Assembly (NCBI GenBank): GCA_902362595.1
Contig: CABIXF010000066.1
Coordinates: 1 to 15,483, forward strand
Source of the DNA: Bacteroidaceae bacterium
GTDB lineage: Bacteria; Bacteroidota; Bacteroidia; Bacteroidales; Bacteroidaceae
DNA length: 15,483 nt
Direction: 5' to 3'
The notes under the pieces are model-generated. The model was not told the DNA's origin. It made no database searches and worked only from the letters and a program-made list of their open reading frames with translations. Numbering within the stretch: the stretch's first letter is position 1; each line of letters opens with the position of its first letter. Below are positions 4,481-15,483 of this stretch, piece after piece. The position numbers and the translations under genes were made by a program.

Positions 4481-5110
4481 ATGAGTATATTTTCGAAACT
4501 TTTTGGTAAAAAAACTACCGATGGAGCTGACGAAACGGTACGTGTCGGTGGCATGGAAGATTTCATGACCTTGATTCGTGTGTATTATCAGGCAGTCATG
4601 GCGGCTCAGTTGGGTATCAGTAATATTCATTTCTTGCCGGATTTGGCTGTATTCAAACGTACGTTGAAGGTACCAACTCAGAACAATAAGTTGGGGATTG
4701 CGGAGCGTGCACGTTGCCGTAAGATGTTGATGGATATTTATGGGTTGGAGGAATCTTTCTTTAAGGAAATAGACGGGTCTATTAAGCGTAACTGCCGCAA
4801 TGTGAACGATATAAAGAATTATCTGTTTATGTTCCAAGGGTTCAGTCAGGATTTGATGATGGTGATTGGAAACCTGATGCAATGGAAGTTTCGCACACCT
4901 GGAGTCTTCAAGAAGTTGTTGCGCAATATGACGGAAAAGGCCGTACATGACATTCTGACTAAGGTGGACTGGAAAGACGATGGGGTACGTAAAACGTGTG
5001 GAAATATTCGTCAGTATCAGCATGCGCTCGGTTATTCGGAGGCATGGATGACGGAATACGTTTATAAGATTGTGTTGCTGGCTAAAAAAGAACCGAAACC
5101 AAAGGCATGA
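4481..5110 (+). CDS. Conserved hypothetical protein, mostly helical, cytoplasmic
   Basis: The 209-residue protein has no domain I can name with confidence. It has no signal peptide or membrane segment. The N-terminus MSIFSKLFGKK is a short basic amphipathic stretch, followed by a predicted all-helical body (about 22-200) with conserved-looking blocks NIHFLPDLAVFKRTLKVPTQ (43-62) and NIRQYQHALGYSEAWMTEYV (175-194). Two close Cys-Arg pairs (CRK, NCRN) are visible but form no obvious metal site. It has its own promoter and its stop overlaps the start of the downstream glycosylase-family gene (ATGA), so the two are translated from one message. A role in DNA maintenance is suggested only by that neighbour. 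The base composition matches the surrounding host genes, so I treat it as a resident gene. Confidence 0.8.
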   Translation: MSIFSKLFGKKTTDGADETVRVGGMEDFMTLIRVYYQAVMAAQLGISNIHFLPDLAVFKRTLKVPTQNNKLGIAERARCRKMLMDIYGLEESFFKEIDGSIKRNCRNVNDIKNYLFMFQGFSQDLMMVIGNLMQWKFRTPGVFKKLLRNMTEKAVHDILTKVDWKDDGVRKTCGNIRQYQHALGYSEAWMTEYVYKIVLLAKKEPKPKA

Positions 5111-5703
5111 CAGTGAACGAGAATCTGCTTTCAGGAGTGGAATGTCATCCGCTGGAGCCTTTTTTGCCGGAGAATGCGGTCTTGTTGATGTTAGGAAGCT
5201 TTCCTCCACAGAAAAAACGATGGAGCATGGATTTCTTCTATCCGAATCTTCAAAATGATATGTGGCGTATTTTCGGGCTTATTTTCTTTGGCGATAAAGA
5301 ACATTTCCTTAGTCCGGAGAAAGTTTTTGACAAGGCACGTATTGTAAGTTTTCTGCAAGAAAAGGGGATTGCCTTATATGATACAGCTTCGTGTGTCCGC
5401 AGATTGCAAGACAATGCTTCTGATAAGTTTCTGGAAGTGGTTACTCCTACCGATATAGACTTGCTTCTTCAGCAACTTCCTGCATGTCGGGCAGTGGTCA
5501 CTACCGGGCAGAAAGCAACGGATGTATTGTGTGAGCAAATGGAGGCAAAAGAGCCGACGGTGGGAGGAGAGAGCACGTTTTATTTCAGGGATCGTAAATT
5601 ATCTTTGTTTCGGATGCCTTCTTCCAGTCGTGCCTATCCATTGAAGTTGGAAAAAAAAGCAGAATATTATCGCCTTATGTTCAGCCGTTTATCTTTGTTG
5701 TGA
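5107..5703 (+). CDS. Uracil-DNA glycosylase superfamily protein (MUG/TDG-like)
   Basis: The 198-residue protein matches the uracil-DNA glycosylase fold family. The N-terminal motif VLLMLGSFPPQKKRW (25-39) corresponds to the catalytic GxxP loop, and FYPNLQNDMWRIFGLIFF (44-61) follows in the usual place. The C-terminal MPSSSRAYPLKLEKKAEYYR (170-189) corresponds to the DNA-intercalating SSS loop. Members excise uracil or mispaired bases in base excision repair, in the cytoplasm. Substrate preference cannot be read from the sequence, because the loop after GSFPP differs between subfamilies. The start codon overlaps the stop of the preceding gene by 4 nt, which fixes the start and suggests translational coupling. 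Confidence 0.82.
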   Translation: MTVNENLLSGVECHPLEPFLPENAVLLMLGSFPPQKKRWSMDFFYPNLQNDMWRIFGLIFFGDKEHFLSPEKVFDKARIVSFLQEKGIALYDTASCVRRLQDNASDKFLEVVTPTDIDLLLQQLPACRAVVTTGQKATDVLCEQMEAKEPTVGGESTFYFRDRKLSLFRMPSSSRAYPLKLEKKAEYYRLMFSRLSLL

Positions 5704-5776: not shown

Positions 5777-5849
5777 ACGGGAATAGCTCAGTTGGTAGAG
5801 CATCGGTCTCCAAAACCGAGTGTCGGGAGTTCGAGTCTCTCTTCCCGTG
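5777..5849 (+). tRNA. tRNA-Trp (anticodon CCA)
   Basis: A complete cloverleaf is visible: acceptor stem ACGGGAA against TTCCCGT, discriminator G at 5849, D-arm GCTC-AGTTGGTA-GAGC, anticodon stem-loop TCGGT-CTCCAAA-ACCGA giving anticodon CCA, variable loop GTGTC, and T-arm GGGAG-TTCGAGT-CTCTC. CCA is not encoded. The gene has its own promoter and points towards the integrase, so its 3' end is the likely attachment site of the adjacent element. Confidence 0.95.
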
Positions 5850-5851
5850 CC
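5824..5851 (+). other. Candidate left attachment site (attL) at the tRNA-Trp 3' end
   Basis: Tyrosine recombinases of phages and integrative elements commonly use the T-arm and 3' end of tRNA genes. The integrase gene begins 130 nt downstream of this 3' end and phage genes follow, so the crossover core probably lies within the T-arm to discriminator region. The second copy (attR) should lie beyond the right end and cannot be seen here. Confidence 0.4.
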
Positions 5852-5978: not shown

Positions 5979-7145
5979 ATGTGTTCATCACTTAGAAAAA
6001 ACGCATCGATTCAGAGTGTAATTTCGTACACAGAACCCAAGTTACATACTGGTAAAACATGGTATATTGACTTCACGGCATACGATCCGCTGGAACAGAA
6101 AATGAAGCGGAAAAAGTATATGCTGGATGGAATACCCAAGCTGACCGACCGTCGCCGCCGGGCAAATGAAATCATCACCAATCTTAATGTAAAGCTTCGT
6201 TCCGGATGGAATCCCTGGGCTAATGTAGAGAACTCCAGGCAATACACCCCGTATATAGATATTATCCAAAGGTATCATATATATCTGGGCAAACTGTATG
6301 CAGCTGGCACCATTAAGGAGAATACCCTGAAGGATTATGAGAAGCGCCTGCGGGTATTTGAGGAGTATACAGCCAAACATATTCCGGCCATCGTGTATGC
6401 GTATCAGATTGACCAGTCTTTCATCTCTGACTTCTTGGACTACGTGCTGCTTGACCGGGATTCATCGGCCAGAACCCGGAATAACTACCGTACCTGGTTG
6501 TCTTCACTCTGTAACTGGATGATGGAAAAGCAATACCTTACTCATAATCCGGTTGAGAAGATTCGACAGCTGGCAGAAGAAGAGAAGAAACGTTCTGCCC
6601 TGACGGTTCCGGATATTCAGAAGCTCAGGAAGTATCTCCAGAAAGAGAATCCGCATTTCCTGTTCTTGTGTCAGTTTGCTTATTACACCTTTATCCGTCC
6701 GGATGAAATCTCCAATATCCGATTGGCTGACATCAACCTGAAGGAACAGAAAGTATTTATCGGCTCCAGTATCAGCAAGAACCGGAAGGATGGCATGGTT
6801 GGACTGAATGATGCACTGATTAAGTCGATGCTTGACCTGGGCGTTTTTAATTCTCCCAATGATTATTATCTGTTCGGTAAGGGCTTCAAGCCCTCACGTG
6901 AGAAGGTGACCACCCGTGTGTACAGGAATTACTTCAATAAGGTCAGAGCAAAACTGAAGTTTCCGGACAGCTACCAGTTCTACTCTCTGAAGGATACCGG
7001 TATCCGTGATTTGGCCAACGCTGAAGGAATCGTCATAGCCCGTGATCAGGCGCGTCATGCGGATATTTCTACAACCAATAAGTACCTGAAAGGGGCAGAC
7101 ATGACAGTGCATGAGGAGACTAAACATTTTGAAGGGAACTTTTAA
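5979..7145 (+). CDS. Tyrosine site-specific recombinase (phage integrase)
   Basis: The 388-residue protein has the usual integrase layout: an N-terminal arm-binding region (about 10-80), a SAM-like core-binding domain (about 88-195) and a C-terminal catalytic domain (about 205-380). Catalytic residues visible are Arg240 (FIRPDEI), Lys267 or Lys270 on the beta-hairpin, His360 (ARHADIST) and the nucleophile Tyr369 (TNKYLK). The second catalytic block, normally HxLR, reads Tyr335-Ser-Leu-Lys338, a variant that I associate with Bacteroidetes integrases of the LKHT/LKDT type rather than with inactivation. It would carry out integration and excision at the neighbouring tRNA-Trp. The gene is convergent with the phage late operon, with 33 nt between the stop codons. 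The ATG at 5979 is the first available after the palindrome; no Shine-Dalgarno sequence is visible. Confidence 0.9.
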   Translation: MCSSLRKNASIQSVISYTEPKLHTGKTWYIDFTAYDPLEQKMKRKKYMLDGIPKLTDRRRRANEIITNLNVKLRSGWNPWANVENSRQYTPYIDIIQRYHIYLGKLYAAGTIKENTLKDYEKRLRVFEEYTAKHIPAIVYAYQIDQSFISDFLDYVLLDRDSSARTRNNYRTWLSSLCNWMMEKQYLTHNPVEKIRQLAEEEKKRSALTVPDIQKLRKYLQKENPHFLFLCQFAYYTFIRPDEISNIRLADINLKEQKVFIGSSISKNRKDGMVGLNDALIKSMLDLGVFNSPNDYYLFGKGFKPSREKVTTRVYRNYFNKVRAKLKFPDSYQFYSLKDTGIRDLANAEGIVIARDQARHADISTTNKYLKGADMTVHEETKHFEGNF

Positions 7146-7178: not shown

Positions 7179-8909
7179 TTATTGGTCCGCTAAATAAAAT
7201 ATCCCCTCAGCTATTTTATCAATGCCTTTTGATGATATTTTATAATGTATCTCTTTGCAATAATATTTTTTGTTGCAAATTAGAAAAATATTATTCAGTT
7301 CATAAATCCTGTCTGCAATGAATTTGAAATGATATTCCAAGGACGTATCAATGGATCTTTTACTTTTGTATATTTGGTTGAACAAACCATTATCTCCATC
7401 TAATATTAAAGAGTATGATGGTAGCTCCAGTATGGATTGTGAACCGGTCATGGTAGTAGGTTTATTTATGAAATAATTATCATGGCATGACATGGGCATC
7501 TTGTCCCAGTACGCTTCTTCGTGCTCCCCTGTACCCTTGTTAAGCGCTACACAGACTCCGTAATATATGCCGACATATAATTTATCAGGGATGTCACCTT
7601 TTACATCTGCGTTGCCATTGATCAGGTCATTGATTGCCTGGCTTTCCGTTTCAGAACGGACTTTTTTTATAGCAGGCCCTATCAAGTAATGGCTGGTCGT
7701 TTTACTGTATATTTCGATTGCATCTACTTGTGCCGGTATAATATCGAAAGAAGTTTTATTTTGACTTGTCGTATCTCCCGCATCTCTCAGCCTGTCTACG
7801 ATTCTTAATCCTTTTACACTTTCATCGTTGATAGTATATTCTGAGACCACGTATTCCAGGTTGTAGTCTGTTGATGTCAGCAGATAGGGGCCTGAAAAAT
7901 ACTGGTCGTAGTTTGTCTTGAAGTCTCTGTACGAATCTTTCTGTTCTATCGTGCAGACTTCGCGTATGCCATCTTTTAGTTTGAGGTAGTTGTAATAGTC
8001 TTCACTCGGAAGATTGTAAGCTACGTTGTCATACGCATACGAATAACTCGTATCGGTGTCATATACTTTCTCCAGTTCATCCTCTATCACCTCATTGATA
8101 AAGATGATACCTGCGTTGTCAAAGTACCGGTCTATGTTCACTATATTGTACACTCCATTTATCGAATCAATGGATACAATGCATTTGAAGAATACTTCTA
8201 TCTGTTCGAGAAATTCGTTGATTGTCCAGTCTGGAAGCAAGTCTCCCGGGTTGCTATTTTTATAAGGGTTAGCTACGAATATACGGCACCAGGTGTCGTT
8301 TTGCTCCAATTCGTTTTTCCCTTTTGTAAACCCCAATTTTTGTAATAAGTTATCAATGTAATATAGCAGATAATATTGTGGAGCGATATTGTTTGCTCGT
8401 GTAAACGTAATATCTGCACCAACTTCTACCATATTCAATATATTGGAGTTCCCATCCTTGTCTATATAGCTGATAATTGGCGTATACACGGCCTTGTGGG
8501 CAGGATAACTCCCGAAGAGGGTATTAATAGCCTCACTGGGTAATATTGACATTCCATCAAAAGGGAGTTGTCTTATACAGCTATCACCACCTTCATAATT
8601 CAGCTGCGAGTTACCGGCTATAATCTGAATCTTTGCTGTATAGGATTCTATTGAAAGTATTACCTCAATGCCATTAATCGCACACAGTCCGTTCACAATC
8701 AGCATAGCCTTGCGGTTTTTTATGCGGGTGGTTACATCTAATCGGTTGATATTTTTGTATATCTCACGATTGGCAGGGTCTCGCAAGTCTATTTCAATAT
8801 CATAGGTATACGAGCCAACTCTGGTAAAGTATGGATTTTCTGTGACAAGCTCGAGTTCAAATTCACTCGGTAACTTCACTTCTTTAGAATCGATAAACAG
8901 CTGTGTCAT
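7179..8909 (-). CDS. Phage tail or tail-tip protein downstream of the tape measure
   Basis: I do not recognise a named domain in this 576-residue protein. Its place directly after the tape measure gene, with a 4-nt overlap (ATGA), is where siphoviruses encode distal tail or tail-tip proteins, so a structural role in the tail tip or baseplate is likely. The N-terminal part (about 1-110) is rich in beta-strand pattern, with TENPYFTRVGSYTYDIEIDL at 24-43, which resembles a beta-sandwich hub domain. Many Tyr, Asp and Asn residues and few lysines in blocks are consistent with a virion protein. There is no signal peptide or membrane segment. It is the last gene of the late operon before the integrase, so usual downstream tail-fibre genes are missing from this position; a tail-fibre fragment is found instead at the right end of the window. 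Composition is AT-rich. Confidence 0.7.
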   Translation of the reverse strand: MTQLFIDSKEVKLPSEFELELVTENPYFTRVGSYTYDIEIDLRDPANREIYKNINRLDVTTRIKNRKAMLIVNGLCAINGIEVILSIESYTAKIQIIAGNSQLNYEGGDSCIRQLPFDGMSILPSEAINTLFGSYPAHKAVYTPIISYIDKDGNSNILNMVEVGADITFTRANNIAPQYYLLYYIDNLLQKLGFTKGKNELEQNDTWCRIFVANPYKNSNPGDLLPDWTINEFLEQIEVFFKCIVSIDSINGVYNIVNIDRYFDNAGIIFINEVIEDELEKVYDTDTSYSYAYDNVAYNLPSEDYYNYLKLKDGIREVCTIEQKDSYRDFKTNYDQYFSGPYLLTSTDYNLEYVVSEYTINDESVKGLRIVDRLRDAGDTTSQNKTSFDIIPAQVDAIEIYSKTTSHYLIGPAIKKVRSETESQAINDLINGNADVKGDIPDKLYVGIYYGVCVALNKGTGEHEEAYWDKMPMSCHDNYFINKPTTMTGSQSILELPSYSLILDGDNGLFNQIYKSKRSIDTSLEYHFKFIADRIYELNNIFLICNKKYYCKEIHYKISSKGIDKIAEGIFYLADQ

Positions 8910-11900
8910 GATTTTATTGTTCGTGTAACGTTTTTCTTCATTTTTTCTACTAACTGTTGCGCTTCATTTACGCCCATTTTACCAGTCGCTTTAGTATAGG
9001 TAAATATCGGCTCGTTTAATCTTTTGAGAAGTTTCTCCATGCATTTCATATTTTGCAGCATGACTGCCGTTGATTCCTGGCTGGATGATTCGGCAGTCTG
9101 ATAGTAGTTGTTTGTTGTCATTCTATTGGTAGGTGATAATACGGCTGATACGTCTTTTGCAGTCAGGCTGCCGATGGTATTGTTTCGCTGTGCCTGGTCT
9201 ATCAGGTCAAGAACCGGATGGATAGCTGGATTCTGGACGGCGTAACGGTTGGCCACAAATTCTCCGGCATGGACTATTCCTTTGGGTTCGTCATGTCTTC
9301 CGGAGCCGGTGTAGCCACCTTCTTCAAACCCATTTATTACAGCCTTTGCCGTTTGGAAGGCTGCAGTGATTAATGCAATTTCAGCTGCAGCTTTAGCTAG
9401 TCCGATGAAACCTAGGGTTGCAATATTTTTCATTTGCGTTTCAGCTATGTATGCAATCATCATTTTTTGAAGGCTGTCCAGGATTATTTCCAAGGTTGCT
9501 TTCATGAAGTCACCCAAGGACGTTTCGGAGTCTGTCAGCATTTCTGCGAATGCTTCGCCAAACTGCTGACCTATATTCTGTGCGAAGGATAGCTGTTCTC
9601 TTATCTTTCGCTGATTTTCTTCATAATTCTTACGGGATTTTTCAAGGCTCGCCTGTTGTTTTTTGTCAATAATCTCAGCTTTCTTTTCTTCGGAAATTTC
9701 AGAAGAAGAAAGTACCTGGTCGTAATATTCATTCTGAATATCGAGTAGCTGCTGACGGTATTCCTGTTCTGATGAAAGTCCGGCATAATGCTTCTGTGTC
9801 ACACTTTCAATCTCCAGCTGGTACTGTTTCTCTAGGCGGGTAAAGGCTTCTTCAGATGCTTTGTTGGCATCTTCTTCATCCAGCTTGTTGCATTCTTCTT
9901 TGTACTTGATTCGTGCTTCGAGAATTTTCTGTTCAATCTGCTGTCGTTTCTCCGGTTCCAGTCCGGCGATTGCCATCATGTTCTCAAGGTGACGCATCTC
10001 CAGGTCTTCCATGAAACGGGTGTATTCCTGCTGTGTCATCTCATCGCTGGCCAGATAGGTGCGTTTCAAATCGGCCAGTTCATCGTAATAACGCTTGTTT
10101 TCTGCGGTGGACGCAATCTCTGTCGTAGATGGTTTGTTATCTGTCCGAGTTGTTGTTATATCTGTATTAGTATTACCATTTTTATCTGGAGTTACGATTA
10201 TTTCGTCTAATTGATTGACAGCTTTCTGATTTTCTTTGGTCTTGACGATTAAAGCACTAAATTTATTCTCTATTTCTGCGATACGATCATAATCATTTTT
10301 TACTATAGATACATAATCTTTTATAGCATCTTTAGCGTCTGACAAGTCATAGAGTTTTAATGAATTGCCATACTTCTTATATAATGATTTGGACACGGCA
10401 TCTGCAATCTGTTTTTCCGTATATCCTTTTTTTACCATATCATCTACATAGCCTATAACTACATTTCTGATATTATCAGTTGTAGATGAAGTTAGTCTAC
10501 GTGATAAAATGCCTTGAAACTCAGCCATGGAATCGGCTCTATCTTCAAGGGACTTATTTGTTATGTCTGATTTTCTCTTTTCTATTTCTTCTAAGGCTAA
10601 TTTATTCTGTATGGCTACAGAAACGTCTTTATAGGCTTTTGCTATATCACGAACAGAGTCTTTTTCTGAAAGAAGATTATCCAAATAACCACCATATTTG
10701 TCATTGAATTCTTTTATAAGCTCGATTCTGCGTCTGCTACCTTCATTGGTATTTCTGATTGCATCGTAAAGTTTGTAAAGCTCCGTTTGTTGTTGTGTGT
10801 TGTTTGTAGAAAAATTTTTGAAGGCCTTGTCTGCGTCACTTGTATAAGTTATTAACTTATATATACCAAATCCCAACGCTGTTACTGCTGTCGATATGGC
10901 TGCGAAAGGATTAAGTTTTAGGGTAGTGAAGAACATCTTCAATGCTGCTACAGAAAGTCTTATAGAAGTTGTAAGATTGGACATTCTCGTGGTTAGCAAG
11001 AACATTGCAGAAGCCTGCAGATATGAAGCTGCTGTCACTGCTTTGCTCCATGTTACTTTGGCCTTATCTACTATAATACTTGCAGCTTTTGCATCTTTAA
11101 ACTTCTCTTCCCATAATGTAGCCAGTTTTAGAGCTGCCATATATGTGCCTAAACTTCCAACTGTTAGTATAATGAGATCTTTGTATTTGATAAACCAGTC
11201 AATCAGGGTGGGGAGGGACACGATGATTTTCGTAGTCCAGCCGGTAAACAGTGACAACGACGGATTGAGCCGCTCCATCAGTTCGATGCCGGCCTCCTTG
11301 ATGCTGTTGCGGTACTGTGCCATCTTCGCCTCGTTGGTGTCGGAGTTGATGGCTGCTTGTTCCATGGCGATGTTGGTATCCGTGACAGCTTCTGTGTATT
11401 GTCGTACCTTATCGGCATTGTCTATCAGGATGGTGGCAGCCGAGTAGGCTTCCTCACCAAACATGGTTTGGATCTGTGCAGCTGTCAGTGACTTTTTGTT
11501 CAGGTTCTCGAGCGCAGTCTGCAAGCCAACCACTTTCGGATTGGTTTCGTCCGGCCCCGTCTGCAGTACCAGGAAGAACTTGCGTAGTGCGGTACCGGCC
11601 GGCTCTGCCTCCAGTCCTTTTTCTGCCAGCATCTGGATGGTACCCTGCAGCTGCTCGATGCTCACTCCGGCACCGGAGGCGGCTACACCCGCATTCTTGA
11701 TGGATGCAGCCTGAGCGGAAACATCGGCTGCACCTTCTTTGGAACCGGCGGCCAGTACATTCACATAGCGAGCGGCCTGGTCGGCTGATTCTCCGTACAT
11801 ATTGAGGGATACGGTGGTGGCTGTCACGGCATCCTTCAGGTCGATTTTAGCGGCAGCGGCCAGTCGCATGGCTTCGATGGTGACGGCGTTCAGGGCTTCT

Positions 11901-12619
11901 TTATCTTTTAGCAGCTCCGGTTTCTTGGAACCGATAAGCATGTACGCCTGAAGGATTTCGTCTGATGACTGACGGATGCGCAGACCGGATTCGTCCATGG
12001 TCGTGGATAGCTTCTCGGCCTGTTCTGTAAGCCACTGGATGGATGAGTCGTCCAACCCGGTTAATGCCTTCAGTTCTGCCTGAGAGGACTCCTTTGAGTC
12101 GCGGTTGTTGCGAAGGGTATTCAGGGCCATAGACACACCTGTAATGGTGGCTGCACCCGTCGCCAACAAGCCGCCCCATTTCGCAAAACCATTGTTGAAA
12201 CGGGACAACCAGCCTTCAGTCTCCTGTACTTCCGTTTTTATCTTTTGAAGCTCAGCTGTTACCAGCTTGGCCTGCTGCTGGTAGTATTTCCACTCGGCAG
12301 ACCCTCGTTTAATGTAACCGCTATTCAGCTGGCGATTGATGGCTGTCAGTGTGGCGCGAAGTTCTTTTGGGGTTGCTTTGTCGAGGTTATTCATTACCTC
12401 GGTAAGTGCCGTAGTGTCTTTTTTCAGTGTCTTAATCTGGGCTTCTGTCTTGCGAAGTTCAGAAGTGACCTGTTTGATTTTAGATGTGTCACCAGCCTGG
12501 TAAGCATCTGCAAGTTCTTTTTTTAACCCGGAAGCTATCGTTTCCAGATTTTTGAGCTCCTGCTTTGCTTCTTCACCGTTTACGCGGACCTCGACGGTTG
12601 CTACCTGGTCTATAGCCAT
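8906..12619 (-). CDS. Phage tail tape measure protein
   Basis: The 1237-residue protein sets tail length and is carried inside the tail tube, ready to assist DNA passage through the host envelope. Residues 1-135 form a coiled coil rich in Lys, Glu and Gln. A hydrophobic stretch near 147-165 leads to the TP901-type core (about 175-450), with Ala/Gly-rich helices such as DVSAQAASIKNAGVAASGAG. Further hydrophobic stretches lie near 485-600, and a long Glu/Lys/Gln-rich coiled coil covers about 850-1030. Near the C-terminus (about 1097-1130) is the typical tape measure motif with EEGGYTG and GIVHAGEFVANR. The start lies 1 nt after the preceding stop codon and the end overlaps the next gene by 4 nt. 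GC content differs sharply inside the gene: about 57% in sampled stretches of the core region but about 23-32% around residues 700-785, suggesting a mosaic origin. Confidence 0.92.
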   Translation of the reverse strand: MAIDQVATVEVRVNGEEAKQELKNLETIASGLKKELADAYQAGDTSKIKQVTSELRKTEAQIKTLKKDTTALTEVMNNLDKATPKELRATLTAINRQLNSGYIKRGSAEWKYYQQQAKLVTAELQKIKTEVQETEGWLSRFNNGFAKWGGLLATGAATITGVSMALNTLRNNRDSKESSQAELKALTGLDDSSIQWLTEQAEKLSTTMDESGLRIRQSSDEILQAYMLIGSKKPELLKDKEALNAVTIEAMRLAAAAKIDLKDAVTATTVSLNMYGESADQAARYVNVLAAGSKEGAADVSAQAASIKNAGVAASGAGVSIEQLQGTIQMLAEKGLEAEPAGTALRKFFLVLQTGPDETNPKVVGLQTALENLNKKSLTAAQIQTMFGEEAYSAATILIDNADKVRQYTEAVTDTNIAMEQAAINSDTNEAKMAQYRNSIKEAGIELMERLNPSLSLFTGWTTKIIVSLPTLIDWFIKYKDLIILTVGSLGTYMAALKLATLWEEKFKDAKAASIIVDKAKVTWSKAVTAASYLQASAMFLLTTRMSNLTTSIRLSVAALKMFFTTLKLNPFAAISTAVTALGFGIYKLITYTSDADKAFKNFSTNNTQQQTELYKLYDAIRNTNEGSRRRIELIKEFNDKYGGYLDNLLSEKDSVRDIAKAYKDVSVAIQNKLALEEIEKRKSDITNKSLEDRADSMAEFQGILSRRLTSSTTDNIRNVVIGYVDDMVKKGYTEKQIADAVSKSLYKKYGNSLKLYDLSDAKDAIKDYVSIVKNDYDRIAEIENKFSALIVKTKENQKAVNQLDEIIVTPDKNGNTNTDITTTRTDNKPSTTEIASTAENKRYYDELADLKRTYLASDEMTQQEYTRFMEDLEMRHLENMMAIAGLEPEKRQQIEQKILEARIKYKEECNKLDEEDANKASEEAFTRLEKQYQLEIESVTQKHYAGLSSEQEYRQQLLDIQNEYYDQVLSSSEISEEKKAEIIDKKQQASLEKSRKNYEENQRKIREQLSFAQNIGQQFGEAFAEMLTDSETSLGDFMKATLEIILDSLQKMMIAYIAETQMKNIATLGFIGLAKAAAEIALITAAFQTAKAVINGFEEGGYTGSGRHDEPKGIVHAGEFVANRYAVQNPAIHPVLDLIDQAQRNNTIGSLTAKDVSAVLSPTNRMTTNNYYQTAESSSQESTAVMLQNMKCMEKLLKRLNEPIFTYTKATGKMGVNEAQQLVEKMKKNVTRTIKS

Positions 12620-12620
12620 A

Positions 12621-13088
12621 TTATTTCTTGTTTAAGATTACACGAATTTTGTACACAGCAAACAGCACGAAGAGAATAAGTACTACGATGGTGAATACCA
12701 TACAGAACTTTTGCCATGTAGAAAGTTTCTTTTCCACTTCAACCTTCTGCTCTGATTTTTGAATAATCGTACTGTCTTTTCCTGGAATAAATATCGTATC
12801 TGAAGGAACCTTGAAATTTGCCATCAGGTTGCCGATTGAATCCAGTTGAAATTGTAGACGTGCGTTTTCTGACTGTGCCATGTCTAACCAGGAAAGTACG
12901 ACACGACCATTTGAGTCACATTCCAGTAAGGCTCGGATGGATGCGGAGTCAGCTGGCTTGAAAACAGGTATCAGCTTGTCGTGTACGATGATTTGTGTAT
13001 GCTCTGAAGCGAGGTGCTTCCCGGTTTCACAACTGAAAAGCACCGTACTGAAGATAATTATGAAGAAAAGTATATTCAATGATTTCAT
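12621..13088 (-). CDS. Lipoprotein with C-terminal membrane segment, candidate unimolecular spanin
   Basis: I place the start at the ATG at 13088, because it overlaps the endolysin stop (ATGA) and opens a signal peptide. A longer frame from 13172 would add a basic, unlikely leader. The 155-residue protein begins MKSLNILFFIIIFSTVLFSC, a lipoprotein signal with Cys20 as the lipidation site. A periplasmic stretch of about 105 residues follows, and a single membrane segment (about 128-147) ends in the basic tail KIRVILNKK, which predicts a cytoplasmic C-terminus. A lipid anchor at one end and an inner-membrane anchor at the other is the topology of unimolecular spanins such as phage T1 gp11, which join or fuse inner and outer membranes at the last step of lysis. 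Position right after the endolysin agrees. No sequence similarity to T1 gp11 is claimed. It could instead be an unrelated membrane lipoprotein. Confidence 0.7.
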   Translation of the reverse strand: MKSLNILFFIIIFSTVLFSCETGKHLASEHTQIIVHDKLIPVFKPADSASIRALLECDSNGRVVLSWLDMAQSENARLQFQLDSIGNLMANFKVPSDTIFIPGKDSTIIQKSEQKVEVEKKLSTWQKFCMVFTIVVLILFVLFAVYKIRVILNKK

Positions 13089-13498
13089 AGCAGCTCCCAT
13101 CCTTTTTCTACGTCTTCCATTACAGCTGCTACTCCGTTTTCCACTTGTGAGATAGCGGCAGCGAAGGCACACATGGTTGTCTTATCCTCCACATCAGGAA
13201 CGTAGGTTGTCGGGACCTGCATTTCCTGGCATACACGTGAAATATAGCCGGATGTGTTGTTTTCTGTTCTGGGTGCCCACCGGCTGATGAAATCGGCAAT
13301 CGTCTGGCAACCGTACTTCAGTCGGTAGTTCTGCAGCAGCTTGATTAATGCCCGATAACCGTGGGCCATGTCTTCGAATTCTTCGAAGGTCTTGTCTTGT
13401 TTTTTAGATGCAGGAACCTCCCCCTGCCAGTCGGTTGTATCTGAGTTGCGGATGTTGCCTGGGTTGTTATTACGCAGGCCACGTGGTTGTGTTGTCAT
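13085..13498 (-). CDS. Endolysin-like peptidoglycan hydrolase (P5-type)
   Basis: The 137-residue protein opens with RGLRNNNPGNIR (6-17), the hallmark of a family of phage lytic enzymes and virion proteins that includes the PM2 P5 type and acts on the glycan strands of peptidoglycan. It continues with FEEFEDMAHGYRALIKLLQNY (38-58), SRWAPRTENNTSGYI (70-84) and AFAAAISQVENG (112-123), in the order usual for the family. There is no signal peptide, so export should depend on a holin, in line with the holin-like gene two genes upstream. Its stop overlaps the start of the spanin-like gene by 4 nt. The catalytic residue is not certain, but Glu39, Glu40 and Glu42 are candidates. The alternative is a virion-bound lysozyme used at infection. 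Confidence 0.8.
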   Translation of the reverse strand: MTTQPRGLRNNNPGNIRNSDTTDWQGEVPASKKQDKTFEEFEDMAHGYRALIKLLQNYRLKYGCQTIADFISRWAPRTENNTSGYISRVCQEMQVPTTYVPDVEDKTTMCAFAAAISQVENGVAAVMEDVEKGWELL

Positions 13499-13515: not shown

Positions 13516-13908
13516 TTAATAATCATTTGGCGGTTGTCTTTTCCCGCATCCTCTTACATCACATCTTTTTACAATCAGCTTTTGATTTTCCAATTCCAGT
13601 GTCGTATTTTTCTCCATGAGCTCGCGAATTCGCAGGCGGTCTTCATTCTTTTCCGCATAAAGCTGGTCTATTTTTTTGTCCTGTTCCTGTACTTTCGCTT
13701 CTTTTTTTTCATAAAGTTCTTTCCATTCTGCTGCATAACTGGTAATGTTGTCCGTTTCGGCTTTACGAGCAATAGCTTCTTCCTTTCGAGCAGTTGCTTC
13801 CTCTTTTCTACGTCGTGCGTCATGAAACATGAATACTCCTATTAGCGGAAGGAATATTGAAGAAAGGATGCTGCTGATTGTATTAACGATATCATTTAAA
13901 AACTCCAT
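13516..13908 (-). CDS. Membrane-anchored coiled-coil phage protein with C-terminal Cys pair
   Basis: The 130-residue protein has one N-terminal membrane segment (about 9-29), a basic stretch with a repeated ARKEEA unit (about 31-50), a long coiled coil (about 51-112) and a short tail with the motif CDVRGCGKRQPP. I recognise no named family. Its plan, one membrane anchor followed by a coiled coil, resembles inner-membrane spanins of the Rz type, and it lies between holin-like and endolysin-like genes. The many positive charges immediately after the membrane segment, however, favour a cytoplasmic C-terminus by the positive-inside rule, which would argue against a spanin. It overlaps the upstream holin-like gene by 17 nt and lies 17 nt before the endolysin gene. 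A holin regulator is another possibility. Confidence 0.75.
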   Translation of the reverse strand: MEFLNDIVNTISSILSSIFLPLIGVFMFHDARRRKEEATARKEEAIARKAETDNITSYAAEWKELYEKKEAKVQEQDKKIDQLYAEKNEDRLRIRELMEKNTTLELENQKLIVKRCDVRGCGKRQPPNDY

Positions 13909-14194
13909 ATAGGTAAATAATCAGAACCGCAATCATAGGAAGGAGTACTCCGGCTAAAATGTCCAGCCAGTCCCACTTTCCACCAATGCTTTTTTGAATA
14001 TATTCTACTGCACACATAGCAACAAATACGCATATTGCACCAGTTAATGTAGCTTGTAGGATAGTCATGGTGGTGAGAAGAAGGACTGATCCAATCCAAA
14101 TGATAAAAATAATGATACCTGCTTTGAGGTGTTTCGGGCGGTTACTAATCTTCAGCCACTCGAACAGATTCGATAAATTCGTCATACTTTTCAT
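13892..14194 (-). CDS. Putative holin
   Basis: The 100-residue protein has three hydrophobic segments (about 25-45, 47-63 and 76-97), separated by a short loop containing YIQKSIGGKWDWLD, and a very short C-terminal tail. Size, membrane topology and place at the head of the lysis genes fit a class I-like holin, which would form lesions in the inner membrane and let the endolysin out. An alternative in-frame start lies 9 nt downstream (ATG at 14185, giving MTNLSNLF); no ribosome binding site decides between them, and two starts close together are known for holin/antiholin pairs. A 15-bp palindrome overlaps the first ATG. No named family can be assigned with confidence from sequence alone. Confidence 0.65.
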   Translation of the reverse strand: MKSMTNLSNLFEWLKISNRPKHLKAGIIIFIIWIGSVLLLTTMTILQATLTGAICVFVAMCAVEYIQKSIGGKWDWLDILAGVLLPMIAVLIIYLYGVFK

Positions 14195-14248: not shown

Positions 14249-14303
14249 GTAGAAAATGGGTAGAAAAGGACAACTAGTAGTCCTATTTCTACCTATTTTC
14301 TAC
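14249..14303. repeat. 55-bp near-perfect palindrome, possible bidirectional terminator
   Basis: The left arm (14249-14271) starts GTAGAAAATGGGTAGAAA and the right arm (14280-14303) ends CTACCTATTTTCTAC; they pair almost fully, with one G-U/A difference and one extra base. The centre, GGACAACTAGTAGTCC, is itself almost palindromic. Within each arm the unit GTAGAAAA is repeated in tandem. On the minus strand the stem is followed by TTTATTATGTCTTTTT, so it could terminate leftward transcription coming from the tail-fibre region. A protein-binding role is also possible. Confidence 0.7.
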
Positions 14304-14334: not shown

Positions 14335-15483
14335 AATCATGAAACTACGCAAGTTCCGGCAGAACTTAGGACGGGTGGGCTTACCATCAGCTTCCTGAAT
14401 GAGTCCGGGGACACTGAAAAATGGGAGTTCGGCGGTGGTTCCTGGGCGATTGGTGGGTTTTCGCAGGTAGGAGCTAAGGAATTTTACAAGTTAGACAATG
14501 AAAAATTAAATAAAAATAATCCAGAACAGTCCGCAATCAAAGATAGTTCAGATACTTTCTATTTTGCAGACTCAAAGGGAAATGTTATTGGGAAACTGGA
14601 TAAGGACGGGTTTAAGGCGATAGAATATCTTCTGAAGGACGGTAAAAAGTTATCAGAAGTGTTGCTATCAAAAACTGAGACTGATAATGATTCCGAATCA
14701 CGGCTGAAGGATAATTCTGACTCTTTTATCTTTTGTGATTCAAAAGGAAATGTAATTTGTCAGATATTAAGAGAAGGTGTTAAGTCTCATGATTTTATCC
14801 TGAAAAACGGGAAAAAATTATCAGAAATAGGTGTGGAGCTGGAGGGGAAAGTAAACAAAGAGGAAGGGAAAGGTCTTTCCTCAAATGATTTTACGGATTC
14901 ATATAAGAAAAAGATTGATGATATTCAGGCTGGTGGAGGTGGAGGGGCTGACGACATAATTAACAGAATGGATGGTTTCTATTTCTGCGACGGAAGTGGA
15001 AATGTGATTCTTAAAATAACATCAGACGGAATATACAACAAGGACGGAACGCCCTTGAAGAATGATGGGAATATCCCGACGAGCTGCATATATGGGAAAA
15101 AACTGTACACTCTCTGTGATTCGTTAGGAACAGCTAATATATGGCAGGAAGAGTTTGCAAAAATAACAGGTTGCATTTTTAACGGTAATGAAAACTACAA
15201 TCAAGGTAATGCGTTCAATTTGTCGGAGGGTGGCACACGGACGCTAGGAAATGACAGGAAATGCGGCCAGATGCGCGCCTTGAAACTTCTAGAACTGCAT
15301 CCTGACGCTGATGTTATATTCTATGAAAACGTCAACGATACATCTGCGAAGAGAGGCTCTATATCTGACGCACCCTTCATGCTTTCACAGATGGTGGATT
15401 ATAATGGAAATATATATGGGAGTAAAGAAGAAGCCCAGGAAGCACTATCTGACGTAATTGAAACGGTTGCGGAAAAGAAAGTG
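14335..15483 (+). pseudogene. Start-less tail-fibre C-terminal cassette with SGNH/GDSL-hydrolase-like domain (runs off the window)
   Basis: The plus-strand frame is open for 383 codons, from the stop at 14332-14334 to the window end. It has no ATG, GTG or TTG near its 5' end; the first in-frame ATG is far inside, at 14968. It begins with the motif ETTQVPAELRTGGLTISFLN, which I associate with the inside of Bacteroides phage tail fibres, not with an N-terminus. Three related repeats follow (from 14542, 14710 and 14962), each around SKGNVI or SGNVI and DG. Between the second and third lies a tail-fibre motif containing EGKGLSSNDFTDSYKKKI. From about 15085 an SGNH/GDSL-like domain starts, with block I YTLCDSLG (Ser at 15121) and a block III-like FYENVND (Asn at 15334). 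Such domains act as carbohydrate esterases. It may be a silent invertible cassette or a true 5' truncation. Confidence 0.75.
14351..14367. other. Dyad AAGTTC-CGGCA-GAACTT, candidate inversion site
   Basis: This is a perfect 6-bp inverted repeat around a 5-bp spacer, placed at the very start of the start-less tail-fibre frame, where it encodes VPAEL. From memory, AGTTC-N5-GAACT is one of the consensus classes reported for invertible DNA in Bacteroides fragilis. A partner copy in opposite orientation would be expected to the right of the window. I found no second copy in the window by eye. Confidence 0.5.

What the first reader, a model, noticed from the sequence alone, without database searches (positions are those of the whole stretch)
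14335..15483. Start-less tail-fibre frame that looks like the silent half of an invertible receptor-binding gene
Seen: a 383-codon plus-strand frame with no start codon, opposite in direction to the adjacent late operon, opening with an internal tail-fibre motif at a short dyad and in good coding condition (no internal stops or frameshifts). Known: in Gin/Min/shufflon-type systems a constant N-terminal gene is joined to alternative C-termini, with the silent cassette lying in reverse at the far end of the invertible segment, its 5' end at the recombination site. The geometry here is exactly that of such a distal silent cassette if the N-terminal gene lies to the right on the minus strand. A simple pseudogene would more probably show decay. 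If right, the prophage changes its tail-fibre enzyme or host range by inversion.
Basis: partly seen in the sequence, partly recalled or inferred. Interest (0 to 1): 0.78.

Follow-up and report, generated by a model that had tools for sequence, protein, structure and literature searches.

The report
Silent half of phage fibre switch
Beside the lysis genes of a gut-bacterial prophage lies a spare tail-fibre ending with no beginning of its own, and related phages indicate that it is one half of a DNA flip switch that exchanges the tip of the fibre; such switches are known, but this version is little described in Bacteroides phages.

Summary
The frame is real: 14335-15483 is open for 383 codons, has no ATG/GTG/TTG before GTG 14659, runs against the late genes and is cut by the window end. 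It begins where fibre homologues have an internal motif, QVPAELRT. Its site (core AGTTCCGGCAGAACTTAG, 14352-14369) recurs as an inverted pair around two convergent cassettes, one fused to a fibre N-terminus and one not, in a Mu-like prophage of Bacteroides mediterraneensis, the window's probable host species, and in virus record G819. In genome G799 three contigs break exactly at such sites, which suggests that both orientations were in the reads. In G799 and G819 the unfused cassette also lies beside lysis genes that read away from it. Best reading: the silent distal cassette of an inversion-switched tail fibre, probably flipped by a tyrosine recombinase; one lies 45 bp from the site in the Mu-like prophage, and that genome has no PF00239 serine recombinase. 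Not shown: the window's own right half, its recombinase, actual flipping, or an effect on host range. New variant of a known kind (Gin/Cin/Min; Rin).

The parts
14335..15483 (+). Start-less distal (silent) fibre cassette, 383 codons, cut by the window end
14352..14369 (+). Putative recombination site, 18-bp core AGTTCCGGCAGAACTTAG (within 23-mer 14350-14372; dyad 14351-14367)
14350..14475 (+). Conserved module at the start of each cassette (about 81% identical to both B. mediterraneensis copies)
15085..15483 (+). Beginning of a probable SGNH hydrolase domain (LCDSLG), by homologues only; bounds approximate
14249..14303 (.). Strong hairpin between lysis genes and cassette, z -9.1 on the + strand and -8.0 on the - strand; probable terminator (the simple terminator scan, limited to loops of 3-8, did not list it)
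13892..14194 (-). Small protein of the lysis side (PHROG 35068, unknown function)
13516..13908 (-). PHROG 32423 protein; the same family lies beside the distal site in G799
13085..13498 (-). Endolysin (PHROG 873)
8906..12619 (-). Tape measure protein (PF10145)
7179..8909 (-). Late protein without family match, conserved in the sister prophages
5979..7145 (+). Tyrosine integrase beside tRNA-Trp; judged not to be the invertase

Best explanation
14335-15483 is the silent distal cassette of a two-way, inversion-switched tail-fibre gene in a prophage of Bacteroides mediterraneensis or a very close species. To the right, beyond the window, should lie a convergent second cassette on the minus strand, a second copy of the site, and the fibre gene's constant N-terminus on the minus strand. 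Recombination between the two inverted sites flips the segment, so that the other C-terminal cassette (here a probable SGNH hydrolase) is fused in frame behind the N-terminus at QVPAELRT. Shown: the frame, the site, and this layout in relatives. Inferred: the window's right half, flipping in this phage, a tyrosine recombinase as the catalyst, and that the exchange changes what the virion binds or cuts.
For: Inverted pairs of the site with one fused and one unfused cassette in the B. mediterraneensis Mu-like prophage and in G819. In G799 the segment contig C3 holds two convergent unfused frames, C13 ends in the N-terminal fibre gene, and C16 begins with the distal flank beside lysis genes; a PHROG 32423 gene lies on the lysis side in both the window and G799. 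C3 overlaps C13 and C16 by exactly 95 bp while its own two ends share no exact run over 26 bp, a break expected if both orientations were sequenced. The 18-mer was found in 2 of 399 family genomes, 2 and 4 copies, with the control pattern at 0. 38 of 39 protein pairs with N-termini at least 90% identical have C-termini at most 25% identical. One cassette occurs both fused (P0022) and beginning at the motif (P0021), 88% identical. A tyrosine recombinase ends 45 bp before the 23-mer in a Mu-like prophage of a genome without PF00239 matches.
Against: The right half is not in the window, and no IMG/VR contig found continues it. No recombinase lies between 7146 and 15483 or, by domain search, in L001's 6.9 kb or G819's 45 kb. 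Backbone relatives L030 and L008 have one fibre gene and no site, and L005 has a 407-residue frame reading with the lysis genes about 100 bp from them. L044 holds the 18-mer once inside a fibre-like frame with no second copy within 2 mismatches in its 99.6-kb record. The dyad is at chance level and differs by one arm base in G799/G819. Constant front with variable tail can also arise by mosaic exchange between phages. In G819 and G799 the unfused frames have a GTG 12 codons past the site, and P0018/P0021 were called with an M before the motif (their DNA was not seen), so independent translation is not excluded. No reads show flipping.
Confidence: 0.85

Rival explanations
1. A relic: the phage once had the switch but has lost its recombinase or its partner site, so the cassette is stuck and silent.
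For: No recombinase is visible beside the site or in L001; backbone relatives L030 and L008 have a single fibre gene without the site.
Against: 383 codons without a stop and 77% identity to P0002 over 73% of the length show no decay; the 23-mer is letter-identical to the copies in other phages.
Confidence: 0.08
2. An ordinary rearrangement or assembly join: a fibre fragment was inserted backwards beside the lysis genes by illegitimate recombination, or the contig is chimeric at the module.
For: The window end is unverified and the left flank matches relatives only up to 14296.
Against: The same junction (unfused cassette opening at the same site beside lysis genes) occurs in G799 and G819, and beside a recombinase in B. 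mediterraneensis.
Confidence: 0.04
3. The resident integrase 5979-7145 is the invertase, or the frame is expressed by itself from GTG 14659.
For: The integrase is the only recombinase seen in the window, and GTG 14659 exists.
Against: A sister prophage of the same kind and site of integration, with its own integrase, lacks the core; no good match to the core near the att region, best 11 of 18; a start at 14659 would drop the conserved module.
Confidence: 0.03

Closest known systems
Rin shufflon of Bifidobacterium prophages (PMC6109161, passages seen) and of Eggerthella lenta prophages (PMC8778435, passages seen)
   Same: Constant receptor-binding N-terminus joined to alternative C-termini at a short repeat at the head of each variable cassette; tyrosine recombinase beside the locus (in the B. 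mediterraneensis relative)
   Different: Several variable genes and an 11-bp site TTCCCTAACCC in Bifidobacterium; here two convergent cassettes, a different site, and no recombinase seen beside the window's site. Kinship of the recombinases was not tested
Second inverted tail locus of Bifidobacterium tRNA-Met prophages (PMC6109161, passages seen)
   Same: No recombinase beside the locus; the authors suggest an invertase supplied in trans
   Different: 8-bp site CAGGGTTA and a segment of about 500 bp
Gin (phage Mu), Cin (P1), Min (p15B) (recalled; named in passages of PMC6109161)
   Same: Two-way flip of fibre C-termini with the silent one reversed at the far end; in the B. mediterraneensis Mu-like prophage the recombinase sits at the far side of the segment, as gin does in Mu (Mu order recalled)
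   Different: Serine recombinases; no PF00239 match in G001 or G819
Inversion of about 2 kb in the putative tail fibre of Bacteroides uniformis phages, group C3 (PMC9727126, passages seen)
   Same: Fibre inversion in phages of Bacteroidaceae
   Different: No site or recombinase in the passages seen; the authors saw no change of host range. Not compared by sequence here

Membership tests
Inversion-switched phage tail-fibre locus (general kind) | Inverted pair of a site flanking alternative C-terminal cassettes | tested here: inconclusive
   Met in the B. mediterraneensis prophage and G819, and in parts in G799; in the window only one site is visible
Inversion-switched phage tail-fibre locus (general kind) | Constant N-terminus on the far side, on the opposite strand | tested here: inconclusive
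   Met in the relatives and in L001 up to its contig end; outside the window
Inversion-switched phage tail-fibre locus (general kind) | Both orientations found in a population | tested here: inconclusive
   Indirect only: contig breaks in G799; no reads
Serine-invertase systems (Gin, Cin, Min) | Serine recombinase in the phage | tested here: not met
   PF00239: no match in G001, G819, L001's record, L005's record or L008's record; the unseen part of the window's phage is not covered
Rin-type tyrosine shufflon | Tyrosine recombinase beside the locus | tested here: inconclusive
   Met in the B. mediterraneensis prophage; not seen beside the window's site or in G819
Rin-type tyrosine shufflon | Short repeat at the head of each variable cassette | tested here: met
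   The core opens the window cassette and the cassettes of the three relatives
Rin-type tyrosine shufflon | Recombinase related by sequence to Rin | not tested
   No Rin sequence was fetched

The most novel reading that the evidence does not exclude
An orphan switch driven in trans: the window's phage (and perhaps G819) carries site and cassettes but no invertase of its own, and is flipped by the tyrosine invertase of an unrelated Mu-like prophage in the same host species, whose site is letter-identical over 23 bp. One recombinase would then set the fibre state of several unrelated prophages in one cell.
Probability: 0.2. Interest if true: 0.75.

Novelty: new variant of a known kind. Interest (0 to 1): 0.52.

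Why it matters
Bacteroides cells vary their surface by DNA inversion (recalled; cited in passages). A phage that flips its fibre tip by a similar route would be a natural counter-move. The cassettes in relatives carry different predicted enzymes: GDSL type, DUF2334, calcineurin-type phosphoesterase (some below the curated cut-off), so one flip could exchange the target. The site gives a sequence handle for finding such switches, and its identity between a Mu-like prophage and a tRNA-integrating prophage of one probable host species makes control in trans testable.

Tried and rejected
The dyad as evidence: rejected, such dyads are common. The integrase as invertase: judged unlikely. The recombinase of the Mu-like prophage as a tRNA-Pro integrase: considered, because tRNA-Pro lies about 0.6 kb away; no att repeat was found in the stretches searched (2440000-2479999), and the phage has a Mu-type portal, a MuB-like ATPase and a PHROG 310 transposase. 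Synonymous conservation at the site: 0 of 6 codons changed against 9 of 26 in the rest of the module, window against the B. mediterraneensis copies; over all 28 pairs 31 of 152 against 227 of 508, pairs not independent; only suggestive.

The window's right side: IMG/VR scans with the frame, tape measure, module, site, recombinase (which found only its own record) and L001's N-terminus gave relatives, but no contig that continues the window. INPHARED: no DNA match, no module match. Relaxed 18-mer in IMG/VR: 9 stretches on 8 contigs; 2 contigs with an inverted pair, L001 cut 27 bp past the core, L044 single in a fibre-like frame, and 4 (L039, L040, L041, L043) in unrelated frames, taken as chance and dropped. 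Module in genomes: 3 of 61 in the genus, two of them weak; 1 of 393 in the order at E 1e-12; 4 of 399 in the family at E 1e-10, of which G704 and G730 have one copy each in a long frame and no core. Structure of P0003: mean pLDDT 54, weak support only; no Pfam family in P0003. In the sister prophage L030 the genes upstream of the fibre that I tested gave no family, so I do not call them portal.

Papers: seven searches listed no report that I recognised of this site or of a tyrosine-recombinase fibre switch in Bacteroidales phages; most subscription journals are not held. Passages seen of PMC6109161, PMC8778435, PMC9727126, PMC5903667, PMC8042965, PMC12135933, PMC2535602, PMC12386605 and PMC10354031; my terms had no hits in PMC11892184 and PMC10939037. 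No paper was read whole.

Full report
What is there. The window holds about 5.7 kb of host DNA, tRNA-Trp (5777-5851), a tyrosine integrase (5979-7145), and phage late genes on the minus strand up to 14194, among them a tape measure and an endolysin. Host stretch 4481-5700 is 96% identical to Bacteroides mediterraneensis NZ_LT635783.1 (handle G001), the next best of 399 family genomes being 85%, so the host is that species or a very close one. G001 carries at tRNA-Trp a sister prophage (L030) with a 716-aa fibre-type gene, lysis-side genes, tape measure, a 576-aa tail gene and an integrase in the same order. A strong hairpin (14249-14303, z -9.1) lies between the lysis genes and the frame.

The frame. 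14335-15483 is open for 383 codons and cut by the window end; its first possible start is GTG 14659. It is 77% identical to P0002 over 73% of its length. In 19 of the 22 proteins with VPAELR[TSK] the motif begins at residue 73 or later, most often 84, so the window frame lacks the front of the gene. The body has diverged repeats (three copies of a 51-nt unit) and ends in the beginning of a probable SGNH hydrolase domain: Pfam finds nothing in P0003, but a profile of seven homologues matches a solved GDSL-like protein (7bxd_A, E 4.4e-6), and a low-confidence model points the same way.

The site in relatives. The 23-mer CAAGTTCCGGCAGAACTTAGGAC was found in IMG/VR in two stretches. One is the B. 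mediterraneensis Mu-like prophage (L002; the same DNA as L004), where it forms an inverted pair 7.3 kb apart, 0 expected. The left copy opens a frame of 675 codons past the site whose first possible start is 168 codons in; the right copy lies inside a 606-aa fibre gene on the minus strand. The copies are 94.5% identical over 165 bp, and continuous identity ends 2 bp outside the 23-mer. The other stretch, L001, is a relative of the window's phage (82.8% over 5.6 kb to the sister prophage): an N-terminal fibre gene runs into the 23-mer, and the contig stops 27 bp after the core. It is the kind of sequence that should lie to the right of the window.

Two further systems came from relaxed searches. 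Record G819 (45,484 bp) has the core at 5502 (+) and 10776 (-): an unfused 763-codon frame beside lysis genes that read away (Amidase_2), and an 804-aa fibre gene on the side of a portal gene. Genome G799 has four copies on three contigs: C13 ends in the N-terminal fibre gene and carries a portal gene, C16 begins with the distal flank followed by lysis genes including an amidase, and C3 (4388 bp) is the segment, with open frames of 699 and 604 codons facing each other. A PHROG 32423 gene lies on the lysis side in the window and in G799. In G819 and G799 the first possible start of the unfused frames is a GTG 12 codons past the site. G819 and G799 share flanks (94.6% over 2.2 kb on the lysis side, 80% over 4.1 kb on the head side) but between the sites only the repeat ends align. 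In the 399-genome family sample only G001 and G799 have the core, and the control pattern gave none.

Is it active? No reads were available. In G799, C3 overlaps C13 at one end and C16 at the other by exactly 95 bp, while the two ends of C3 (first 300 bases each) share no exact run over 26 bp, 18 bp at the site. With a single orientation no 95-base word would be shared, and a graph assembler should have run through; a break at both sites suggests that both pairings were present. This is inference; the assembler and read depth are unknown. At protein level, of 171 comparable pairs among the 22 motif proteins, 39 have N-termini at least 90% identical, and 38 of these have C-termini at most 25% identical (exception P0013/P0016). 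One cassette is found fused (P0022) and beginning at the motif (P0021), 88% identical; P0021 and P0018 were called with an M before the motif, and their DNA was not seen. Mosaic exchange between phages could give the first pattern too.

Which recombinase? In the Mu-like prophage a 391-aa tyrosine recombinase (PF00589, PF13102) ends 45 bp before the 23-mer. That prophage has a Mu-type portal, a MuB-like ATPase and a PHROG 310 transposase (E 3.5e-90), so it probably needs no integrase, and G001 has no PF00239 match. The recombinase sits where Mu has gin (Mu order recalled). For the window's phage the invertase is unknown: none between the integrase and the window end, none by domain search in the 6.9 kb of L001 or the 45 kb of G819. 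G819 may be incomplete: it begins where G799 has a divergent tyrosine recombinase (L037 6273-7553), perhaps that prophage's integrase. An invertase in the unseen part and one acting in trans both remain open.

Against. Backbone relatives lack the site: L030 and L008 have one fibre gene, and L005 a 407-residue frame that reads with the lysis genes about 100 bp from them. L044 shows the 18-mer once inside a fibre-like frame without a partner. The dyad is at chance level, and one arm base differs in G799/G819. Codon conservation at the site is only suggestive.

Verdict. It works like a Gin- or Rin-type fibre switch. Membership in the serine (Gin) kind is not supported; membership in a Rin-type kind is plausible, with the kinship of the recombinases untested. 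A fibre inversion has been reported in B. uniformis phages without effect on host range in their tests (PMC9727126, passages), so a phenotype must not be assumed.

Noticed in passing
L002 4335-7592: In the type strain of B. mediterraneensis an IS21-like istA/istB pair (name from recall of the protein type) sits inside the segment, between the 606-aa fibre frame and a 187-aa piece that looks like the rest of the same cassette: the fused fibre appears interrupted. A second close copy of the pair lies in L030 383-2730.
   Followed up: partly
L008 7285-8187: A 300-aa minus-strand gene lies between fibre and lysis genes, at the place where the window has the silent cassette; this gap looks like an insertion spot.
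   Followed up: no
L035 2-2101; L035 2573-4387; L051 5491-7779; L051 8597-11008: Cassettes of one switch carry different predicted enzymes: DUF2334, GDSL (just below cut-off), weak GDSL, calcineurin-type phosphoesterase.
   Followed up: partly
window 14539-15009: The cassette body holds three diverged copies of a 51-nt unit, perhaps repeats of a fibre shaft.
   Followed up: no
L002 1575-1606: A hairpin (z -5.3) lies just outside the distal site of the Mu-like prophage, as in the window; it may stop the fibre transcript there.
   Followed up: partly
L044 1138-1155: The 18-mer lies once, in frame, inside a fibre-like frame of a 99.6-kb virus record without a partner copy.
   Followed up: partly
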